Shown here one piece after another: positions 24,661-25,182 of a DNA stretch of 64,000 nucleotides. The position numbers and the translations under genes were made by a program. The DNA is taken from positions 35,920-99,919 of the forward strand of contig JAFLBB010000006.1 of assembly GCA_017304135.1 (NCBI GenBank), in the 5' to 3' direction. The DNA comes from Acidobacteriota bacterium. GTDB lineage: Bacteria; Acidobacteriota; Terriglobia; Bryobacterales; Bryobacteraceae. Numbering within the stretch: position 1 is the stretch's first letter; every line of letters starts with the position of its first letter. The notes beneath the pieces were generated by a model. That model ran no database searches. It had not been told where the DNA came from and saw nothing but the letters and a program-made list of their open reading frames with translations.

Positions 24661-25182
24661 CTAGTGTTTCAGCCGGCTACAAGCGGTTGCCGCGCCGGTG
24701 ATGTCAATGGCGCCCGAACCCTCCTCGATGTGTTGGATGACGCCGCTGGCGTCGATGACGAATGTGGCCCGGTTGGCGATTCCGCGGTCAGCCATGAGCA
24801 CGCCGAAATCGGCGGCGGTCTTCCGCATGAAGTCGCTCAACATGGCGAATTCGATGTTTTCTTCTTTGGCCCAGTGACCCAGGGTGGGAAGGTTGTCGGT
24901 GCTGACCATGAACACTTCAGCTCCGGCATCCTTGAACTTTTGGATACCAGCCTGGTATCCGCGAAGTTCCTTCGTTCAACCACCGGTGAAGGCGGCCGGG
25001 AAAAACGCCAGCACAACGGTCGACTTGCCCGCGAAATCGGTAAGCGCGACCTGTCCCCCCTTCGTCGAGCCCAGCTCGAAGGCGGGGGCTTTGTCGCCCA
25101 CCTTCAGATGAGTCTTCGGCGGCGCGGGGGCCTGTGCCAGCATCGTTCCCGCCGCCAGAGCAAGCAGGAAAGTGCGTCGCAT
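24661..25182 (-). CDS. Exported peroxiredoxin with selenocysteine (in-frame TGA) at the peroxidatic site
   Basis: Read straight through, the frame from 25182 to 24661 encodes 173 residues, exactly the length of the adjacent cysteine paralogue. The only interruption is TGA at 24978-24976. It falls at the peroxidatic position, AFFPAAFTGG-[TGA]-TKEL against AFFPAAFTGGCTKEM in the paralogue. No other stop or frameshift occurs, and the downstream half is well conserved (NRATFVID, EEGSGAIDITGAATACSRLKH). A SECIS-like hairpin follows the TGA (24934-24969). Signal peptide MRRTFLLALAAGTMLAQA predicts periplasmic peroxide reduction with a Sec nucleophile; Cys in TACSRL could resolve it. The start ATG is 13 bases after the PEP-CTERM stop, without a clear ribosome site. 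The alternative is a nonsense pseudogene, judged unlikely. selABCD genes must lie elsewhere. Confidence 0.85.
24934..24969 (-). promoter_or_regulatory. Candidate bacterial SECIS element for Sec insertion at the TGA 24976-24978
   Basis: On the minus strand, six bases after the TGA: GAACTT, internal CGC, GGATACC, loop AGGCT, GGTATCC, internal AA, AAGTTC. Both the 7-bp upper stem and the 6-bp lower stem are perfect. The apical loop begins 23 bases after the TGA and has G at positions 2-3, as expected for SelB-recognised hairpins (E. coli fdhF has a similar AGGTCT loop). The cysteine paralogue has no such hairpin at the equivalent place. Confidence 0.8.

What the first reader, a model, noticed from the sequence alone, without database searches (positions are those of the whole stretch)
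24661..25182. Selenocysteine peroxiredoxin hidden as a split gene, with its own SECIS
Seen: the frame is open except for a TGA that replaces precisely the peroxidatic Cys codon of the adjacent intact paralogue (FTGG-TGA-TKEL against FTGGCTKEM). The TGA-spanning product has 173 residues, as does the paralogue, with high similarity on both sides. A two-part stem (7 + 6 bp) lies 6-42 bases after the TGA with apical loop AGGCT starting 23 bases downstream, as required by SelB. Known: Sec-containing peroxiredoxins and such hairpins occur in bacteria. Inference: this is an exported selenoprotein, and gene callers will report two fragments. Unusual points are a signal peptide on the Sec protein and the Cys/Sec tandem pair.
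Basis: partly seen in the sequence, partly recalled or inferred. Interest (0 to 1): 0.93.

Follow-up and report, generated by a model that had tools for sequence, protein, structure and literature searches.

The report
Secreted selenium peroxidase of Acidobacteria
This acidobacterial gene has one UGA codon exactly at the catalytic site of a peroxide-destroying enzyme; with a conserved RNA hairpin behind it and selenocysteine genes in the same genome, it is very likely read through as selenocysteine to make a full-length, predicted exported selenium enzyme, of a kind that gene finders cut short in its relatives.

Summary
Confirmed. On the minus strand, 25182->24661, a 173-residue peroxiredoxin frame is open except for one TGA (24976-24978) at the peroxidatic position. 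The genome encodes tRNA-Sec, SelA, both halves of SelB at contig ends, and a TGA-containing SelD (frame-shifted in this assembly, intact in two congeners). In 158 fetched loci (161 aligned copies, duplicates included) the site is TGA 127 times, a Cys codon 34 times, nothing else. A hairpin meeting published bacterial SECIS rules follows; its three apical pairs form in 107 of 109 distinct Sec copies but 3 of 30 Cys copies, with a C-G/U-A swap that changes the protein (Gly/Asp). All 109 Sec proteins have one Cys past residue 20, near the C-terminus, so a Sec-Cys catalytic pair is likely. Sec peroxiredoxins are known; new here, as far as I could search, is a predicted exported Sec/Cys version in the window's order and in eight other family groups of the phylum, where all 29 fetched copies lack the Pro of PxxxTxxC. 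The Cys/Sec tandem is local: two draft congeners lack the Cys gene.

The parts
24661..25182 (-). Sec-containing peroxiredoxin reading frame (173 aa with TGA read as Sec)
   Evidence: translation; PF00578 120 bits against cut-off 26; homologues
24976..24978 (-). in-frame TGA, residue 69, peroxidatic position of PxxxTxx(U/C)
   Evidence: site is TGA or a Cys codon in 161 of 161 aligned copies
24934..24969 (-). bacterial SECIS-like hairpin; diagnostic upper stem-loop 24942-24960 with AGGCU at 24949-24953; lower stem 24964-24969 / 24934-24939 not family-specific
   Evidence: fold; pair counts, Sec against Cys copies; published bSECIS rules
25129..25182 (-). predicted N-terminal signal peptide MRRTFLLALAAGTMLAQA
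   Evidence: read by eye; hydrophobic run in the first 26 residues in 71 of 80 Sec and 27 of 31 Cys copies; no SignalP run
24679..24681 (-). codon of Cys168, the only Cys of the protein, inferred resolving partner of Sec69
   Evidence: invariant in 42 of 42 aligned sequences; one Cys past residue 20 in 109 of 109 Sec copies
24055..24576 (-). tandem Cys paralogue (61% identity), without the hairpin
   Evidence: absent next to the Sec gene in two congeners

Best explanation
The gene carries one UGA at the catalytic position of a peroxiredoxin, followed by a conserved hairpin, and is very likely decoded as selenocysteine by the genome's SelA/SelB/SelD/tRNA-Sec system to give a full-length 173-residue enzyme that is predicted to be exported. 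Shown by sequence: the UGA, its alternation with Cys codons and nothing else in the copies examined, the hairpin and its covariation, the machinery genes, one conserved C-terminal Cys. Inferred: SelB binds the GGC loop of the hairpin while the UGA is in the A site and delivers Sec-tRNA; the product is exported, and outside the cytoplasm Sec69 reduces peroxide, its selenenic acid being resolved by Cys168 of the tail as a selenenylsulfide that a thioredoxin-like partner reduces.
For: Machinery in the same genome: SelA 400.8 bits, 1-365 of 367; tRNA-Sec 69.3 bits over the cut-off 47, anticodon tca by ARAGORN; SelB N-half at the edge of contig C78 (286.9 bits, over cut-off) and C-half with SelB-wing_2 and SelB-wing_3 at the edge of contig C138; SelD with an in-frame TGA and a 7-bp hairpin with GGU loop behind it. 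Site: TGA 127, TGC 32, TGT 2 of 161 copies in 158 loci, each TGA copy with that one stop only. Order-wide: of the 150 rows shown 120 have one TGA and 30 no stop, none TAA or TAG (further matches not listed). Hairpin: apical pairs 20-30, 21-29, 22-28 all formed in 107 of 109 Sec against 3 of 30 Cys copies; pair 21-29 is C-G in 78 and U-A in 30 Sec copies. The codon over positions 28-30 is GGT in 76 and GAT in 3 of 79 Sec copies, GGT in 3 of 30 Cys copies; 229 of 954 background Gly codons are GGT. Published bSECIS rules met by 104 of 109 Sec, 7 of 30 Cys copies. One Cys past residue 20 in 109 of 109 Sec proteins, 99-101 residues after Sec in 106 of 109. Genomes lacking a strict tRNA-Sec hit: SelA at 1e-40 in 16 of 22 with the Sec gene, 0 of 9 with only Cys rows (Fisher p 0.00025). 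Model pLDDT 91.9; AhpE-like fold, TM up to 0.83.
Against: No expression or protein data. The assembly's selD has a shift of frame about 0.1 kb after its own TGA; if real and not an assembly error, Sec synthesis in this strain would be impaired. Generic SECIS rules are permissive: 2321 of 7739 upstream codon positions pass. Stability against synonymous recoding is modest (mean z -0.91 Sec, -0.37 Cys, -0.31 for an upstream control stretch); the case rests on position and sequence conservation, and related copies are not independent. Two of 109 Sec copies (L242, L243) lack the hairpin. tRNA-Sec presence alone barely separates Sec-gene genomes from the rest (96 of 118 against 98 of 139, Fisher p 0.058; the rest includes genomes whose matches were not listed). 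Six of 118 Sec-gene genomes have neither a strict tRNA-Sec hit nor SelA at 1e-40 (drafts, 72-95% complete). Export and the Sec69-Cys168 bond are inferences; their distance in the model was not measured.
Confidence: 0.95

Rival explanations
1. A pseudogene or sequencing error: a Cys codon mutated or misread to TGA, the enzyme being lost.
For: The frame is interrupted and an intact Cys paralogue lies next door.
Against: The same TGA stands at the same site in 127 of 161 fetched copies, with no second stop; both halves stay conserved; the hairpin goes with TGA, not with Cys; decay would be expected to give TAA and TAG too, and the rows shown have none.
Confidence: 0.01
2. The gene family is a true selenoprotein family, but decoding is impaired in this one strain because selD is broken, so only the truncated product is made here.
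For: Two selD matches in different frames around C236:2270; both congeners have one uninterrupted selD frame with its TGA.
Against: One-base indels are common in draft assemblies (general knowledge); the other machinery genes found have no such break, SelB being split only by contig ends, and the Sec gene itself keeps its hairpin.
Confidence: 0.06
3. TGA is read as Trp, as in genetic code 4.
For: At least 42 of 222 listed database proteins show W at the site.
Against: Those are predicted proteins, many from contigs of 1-3 kb; the genome has a tRNA-Sec with anticodon tca; the alternative codon is Cys, never Trp, in the 161 copies; the hairpin would be unexplained.
Confidence: 0.01
4. Translation stops at the TGA and restarts inside, two separate fragments being functional.
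For: Internal starts exist (84-aa ORF 24661-24915; 105-107-aa database fragments).
Against: The halves together make one peroxiredoxin domain (Pfam 28-152) and the catalytic residue would be missing; no reason for the hairpin or the TGA/Cys-codon rule.
Confidence: 0.01

Closest known systems
Sec-containing peroxiredoxin (Prx, TxxU; first described from Eubacterium acidaminophilum, Sohling 2001, as cited in PMC13188914)
   Same: PF00578 fold, Sec at the peroxidatic position of PxxxTxxU, UGA plus downstream hairpin
   Different: predicted signal peptide; lone C-terminal Cys; far below the NCBIfam model named PrxU, NF040737 (64 bits against cut-off 270); the 29 copies fetched from other families of the phylum have Val (28) or Ser (1) for the motif Pro
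AhpE of Mycobacterium tuberculosis (Rv2238c)
   Same: best PDB sequence match (E 2.4e-19) and among the best fold matches, TM up to 0.83
   Different: AhpE is called a 1-Cys peroxiredoxin (title of PDB 1xvw); here Sec plus an invariant C-terminal Cys and a predicted signal peptide
AhpC / Prx1 two-Cys peroxiredoxins
   Same: C-terminal Cys as resolving partner (inferred by analogy, recalled)
   Different: TIGR03137 78.3 bits against cut-off 272; the tail is short, not the long AhpC tail (recalled)
Bacterial SECIS elements (bSECIS model, PMC13188914 Fig. 2 legend, passage seen)
   Same: GGC or GUC loop, 8-bp stem, 23 nt from the UGA, energy below -7.5
   Different: two stem geometries in one family: A18-U32 paired, or U32 bulged with the pairs below it shifted by one

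Membership tests
Bacterial selenoprotein gene | in-frame UGA aligning with Cys in homologues | tested here: met
   TGA 127, Cys codon 34 of 161 copies
Bacterial selenoprotein gene | bSECIS: 3-9 nt apical loop, 4-16 bp upper stem, G in the first two loop positions, 16-37 nt from UGA, MFE <= -7.5 (PMC13188914) | tested here: met
   window: 8 bp, loop GGC, 23 nt, -16.4 kcal/mol; 104 of 109 Sec copies, 7 of 30 Cys copies, 2321 of 7739 background positions
Bacterial selenoprotein gene | SelA, SelB, SelD, tRNA-Sec in the genome | tested here: met
   caveats: SelB split over two contig ends, selD frame-shifted in this assembly
Bacterial selenoprotein gene | Sec in the protein (75Se, mass spectrometry) | not testable with these tools
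   no experiment
Peroxiredoxin (AhpC/TSA) | Pfam PF00578 over cut-off and peroxiredoxin fold | tested here: met
   120 bits against 26; Foldseek TM 0.78-0.83 to Bcp1, Bcp4, AhpE
Peroxiredoxin (AhpC/TSA) | PxxxTxx(C/U) motif with catalytic Arg | tested here: met
   P62, T66, U69 in the window; R138 invariant in 42 of 42 (its catalytic role is recalled). In the 29 copies from other families of the phylum the Pro is Val in 28, Ser in 1
AhpE (1-Cys) | no resolving Cys | tested here: not met
   C168 invariant; not filed as AhpE
AhpC (TIGR03137) | curated score 272 | tested here: not met
   78.3 bits
PrxU (NF040737) | curated score 270 | tested here: not met
   64 bits
Prx-SUH (NF045827) | curated score 298 | tested here: not met
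   48.4 bits
Thioredoxin-dependent thiol peroxidase (NF006960) | curated score 140 | tested here: not met
   77.1 bits

The most novel reading that the evidence does not exclude
Acidobacteriota carry a phylum-wide class of exported Sec/Cys peroxidases in which selenium has freed the active site from the Pro of the PxxxTxxC motif (VLAFTGGU), and in which the SECIS hairpin dictates the enzyme's own sequence: a base-pair swap in the RNA stem is mirrored by Gly-to-Asp in the protein, so amino acids co-vary with an RNA structure rather than with catalysis.
Probability: 0.5. Interest if true: 0.66.

Novelty: new variant of a known kind. Interest (0 to 1): 0.52.

Why it matters
It adds a large group of selenoproteins, in 118 listed genomes of the window's order (Bryobacterales by the record titles) and in eight other family groups of the phylum among the 29 loci fetched, whose database entries are often fragments or mistranslated (19 fragments and at least 42 W readings among 222 listed homologues). 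Repeated Sec/Cys change on one tree (11 at the fewest, about 6 forced by well-supported branches of a quick tree), a Cys copy with the hairpin still intact, and genomes where both forms sit side by side make it a natural test of what Sec buys over Cys in a predicted exported peroxidase. The Val-for-Pro forms, found with Sec and not securely with Cys, make a direct test of whether selenium relaxes the demands of the peroxiredoxin active site.

Tried and rejected
Pseudogene, Trp reading and split product were weighed against and set aside. Co-occurrence with tRNA-Sec alone was weak, because unlisted matches sit in the comparison group and strict filters miss tRNAs; SelA was more telling, but there I searched only the 31 genomes without a strict tRNA hit, 22 with Sec rows and 9 with Cys rows only. 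A relaxed tRNA search gives scores just over the cut-off (47.2-53.8 bits) in 13 of 22; other tRNAs score nearly as high, so I do not count them. Rfam gave no hit on the hairpin in 20000-30000. No promoter or terminator pattern in 23950-25400. Synonymous-recoding energy test: weak. Gene neighbourhood by longest ORFs: a gene with Rce1-like and DUF4901 matches (two of six copies scanned) lies beside the Sec gene or its tandem partner in 6 of 18 loci compared; no other gene but peroxiredoxin pieces was shared by more than 3 loci. No match over the formate dehydrogenase cut-off (TIGR01553), so that usual Sec client was not found. One search translated the wrong strand. One search was a first, too strict count of the site residue (it missed 18 of 158 loci and gave one stray 'T'); it was replaced. 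One Cys row (L074, a second ORF) was dropped after as a different protein.

Full report
What is there. The reading frame lies on the minus strand, 25182->24661. Read with TGA as one residue it gives 173 aa, MRRTFLLALAAGTMLAQA...FFPAAFTGG-U-TKEL...ACSRLKH, with a single TGA at 24976-24978, residue 69. It scores 120 bits with AhpC-TSA, PF00578, residues 28-152. Directly downstream on the same strand lies a 170-173 aa Cys paralogue, 61% identical.

Machinery. The window is part of a 6.49-Mb, 353-contig draft genome. It encodes SelA (400.8 bits), a tRNA-Sec over the Rfam cut-off that ARAGORN also calls tRNA-SeC with anticodon tca, the N-terminal part of SelB at one contig edge and its C-terminal winged-helix part at another, and SelD. 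SelD itself has a TGA in the stretch AGUASKLSP, with a 7-bp hairpin and GGU loop behind it, so it is probably a selenoprotein too. In this assembly selD also has a shift of frame downstream of the TGA; both congeners have one continuous selD frame with a TGA. I cannot tell an assembly error from a real lesion. No match passes the formate dehydrogenase cut-off.

The site across relatives. The nearest named records are Bryobacterales MAGs (91% and 89%). In the order 195 of 257 genomes have a match at 1e-20; of the 150 rows shown, 120 have one TGA and 30 no stop, and none has TAA or TAG (more matches exist that are not listed). I fetched 81 of the 120 TGA rows and all 30 rows without a stop. In a sample of the phylum 118 of 396 genomes match; every row shown that reaches query residue 170 has one TGA, except the window's own Cys paralogue and one partial match that begins beyond the site; 29 of these were fetched. 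Aligning the 158 fetched loci, the window's own included, the codon at position 69 is TGA in 127, TGC in 32 and TGT in 2 of 161 copies, and every TGA copy has exactly that one stop in the aligned stretch. Because I chose the rows, the ratio of TGA to Cys is not a frequency. Some genomes occur in two collections; after removing identical stretches 109 Sec and 30 Cys copies remain (one unrelated ORF dropped).

The hairpin. Numbering from the base after the UGA, positions 20-30, 21-29 and 22-28 are all paired in 107 of 109 Sec copies and in 3 of 30 Cys copies. Pair 21-29 is C-G in 78 and U-A in 30 Sec copies; the U-A form changes the codon GGT to GAT, Gly to Asp, so the protein follows the RNA. 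Three of the U-A copies lie in the order (L044, L167, L187), the others outside it. Position 23-27 is A-U in 107 and G-C in 2. The five bases 23-27 are AGGCU in 80 and AGUCU in 20 of 109. In the first set the codon is GGT in 76 and GAT in 3 of 79 Sec copies, GGT in 3 of 30 Cys copies, against 229 of 954 background Gly codons. The lower part exists in two geometries, A18-U32 paired as in the window, or U32 bulged with pairs shifted by one. Published bSECIS rules are met by 104 of 109 Sec and 7 of 30 Cys copies; they are loose, since 2321 of 7739 other codon positions pass. Folding energy against synonymous recoding separates only weakly. One Cys copy, L048, still carries the upper hairpin: most simply a remnant after Sec-to-Cys change, as described for other families in PMC1794560 (passages seen).

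Co-occurrence. Of 118 genomes with a Sec row in the list, 96 have a strict tRNA-Sec hit; of the other 22, 16 have SelA at 1e-40, so 112 of 118 show at least one of the two. Of 26 genomes whose listed rows are Cys only, 17 have a strict tRNA-Sec hit and none of the other 9 has SelA at 1e-40 (Fisher 0.00013 for 112 of 118 against 17 of 26, 0.00025 for SelA alone). Against all other genomes of the order the tRNA alone does not separate (p 0.058).

Enzyme. All 109 Sec proteins have exactly one Cys past residue 20, near the C-terminus, 99-101 residues after Sec in 106; the 30 Cys proteins have it too, besides the catalytic Cys. It is invariant, with T66, G68 and R138, in 42 aligned sequences. The AlphaFold2 model (mean pLDDT 91.9) matches Sulfolobus Bcp1 and Bcp4 and M. 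tuberculosis AhpE (TM 0.78-0.83); AhpE is also the best PDB sequence match. Residue 69 lies in helix 67-78 and Cys168 in the last helix, 162-172; I could not measure their distance. I infer a cycle of selenol, selenenic acid and selenenylsulfide. The signal peptide is read by eye; an RR pair stands in the first ten residues of 23 of 80 Sec copies, so Tat export is possible.

A changed motif. In the window's order 79 of 80 Sec copies have the motif Pro (L191 has VLAFTGGU). In the 29 Sec copies from other families of the phylum (eight family codes) it is Val in 28 and Ser in 1. All 30 Cys copies have Pro, but all come from the window's order, so clade and residue are confounded. Among 222 listed protein-database homologues Val goes with W in 39 and with C in 1 (P0124, where the source letter may have been U), 19 more are C-terminal fragments of 105-107 aa, 1 fits no pattern, and Pro goes with C in 159 and W in 3 (the best 120 of 1832 and of 4871 hits, overlapping). 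W at such a site is most easily a gene call with TGA as Trp. So Val has been seen with Sec but not securely with Cys.

Evolution. On a quick maximum-likelihood tree the fewest Sec/Cys changes are 11, of which well-supported branches force about 6; 50 of 141 inner branches are weak, an outgroup row falls on the wrong side, and direction is not inferred. In both congeners the Sec gene sits next to the gene found at 26267 in the window (AI-2E-type transporter, name recalled), and the window's Cys gene and the gene between (PEP-CTERM-like by eye) find no counterpart there; the congeners, drafts of 90 and 92% completeness, have one match each genome-wide. The tandem is therefore local; one other pair was seen, in G060 (L047).

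Literature. Sec peroxiredoxins are long known: 12 in Table 1 of PMC1794560, 91 in 78 organisms in PMC5029168, PF00578 TxxU in the 2026 review PMC13188914, 253 in ocean data in PMC2398784 (passages seen in each). PMC1794560 names Acidobacteria in a list of phyla 'some of which have selenoproteins'. PMC12013277 uses one acidobacterium as a test genome (one passage). In the held library, searches for selenoprotein+peroxiredoxin+Acidobacteria, selenocysteine+Solibacter, selenoproteins/Acidobacteriota/selenocysteine, selenoproteome+bacteria+peroxiredoxin+SECIS, selenocysteine+Bryobacter, resolving and selenenylsulfide, the Pro motif, AhpE+selenocysteine+peroxiredoxin, selenocysteine+Acidobacteria+UGA and selenoprotein+Acidobacteriota+peroxiredoxin (none) listed nothing that, by title and start of abstract, describes this group or a Pro-less Sec peroxiredoxin; subscription papers and supplements were not searched, and long lists were shown only in part.

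Verdict. The observation and the selenoprotein reading stand. The kind is known; the variant, exported in prediction, with a lone C-terminal Cys partner, spread over the phylum and with a Val-for-Pro branch, appears undescribed in what I could search.

Noticed in passing
G000 contig C236 around 2130-3044 (L027, L252): selD of the window's genome has an in-frame TGA with its own hairpin, plus a shift of frame downstream; the two congeners have uninterrupted frames with the TGA.
   Followed up: partly
L222-L250 (other families of the phylum), L191, L077: Sec peroxiredoxins with Val (or Ser, L242) in place of the Pro of PxxxTxxU; no secure Cys counterpart in the database lists seen.
   Followed up: partly
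L048: A Cys copy that keeps the upper SECIS hairpin, apparently a remnant of a former Sec gene.
   Followed up: partly
25196-26047 (-): A PEP-CTERM-like protein gene (C-terminus VPEPATSLLLAAGLLALACARRRS, by eye) next to the Sec gene; no counterpart at this place in both congeners.
   Followed up: partly
L256, L258, L261, L265, L267, L268: A gene of about 1090 aa (Rce1-like and DUF4901/YcdB matches in the two copies scanned) lies beside the Sec peroxiredoxin or its tandem partner in 6 of 18 loci; link unknown.
   Followed up: partly
31538-32503 (-): An ORF (transglutaminase-like by eye) ends in a run of ten Gln codons, a possible repeat tract.
   Followed up: no
L084 (Planctomycetaceae record): A peroxiredoxin motif WFPKAFTGGU with TGA at the site, outside Acidobacteriota.
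   Followed up: no
P0125-P0145 and others: Database proteins show W at the Sec site, most likely gene calls made with TGA as Trp.
   Followed up: partly
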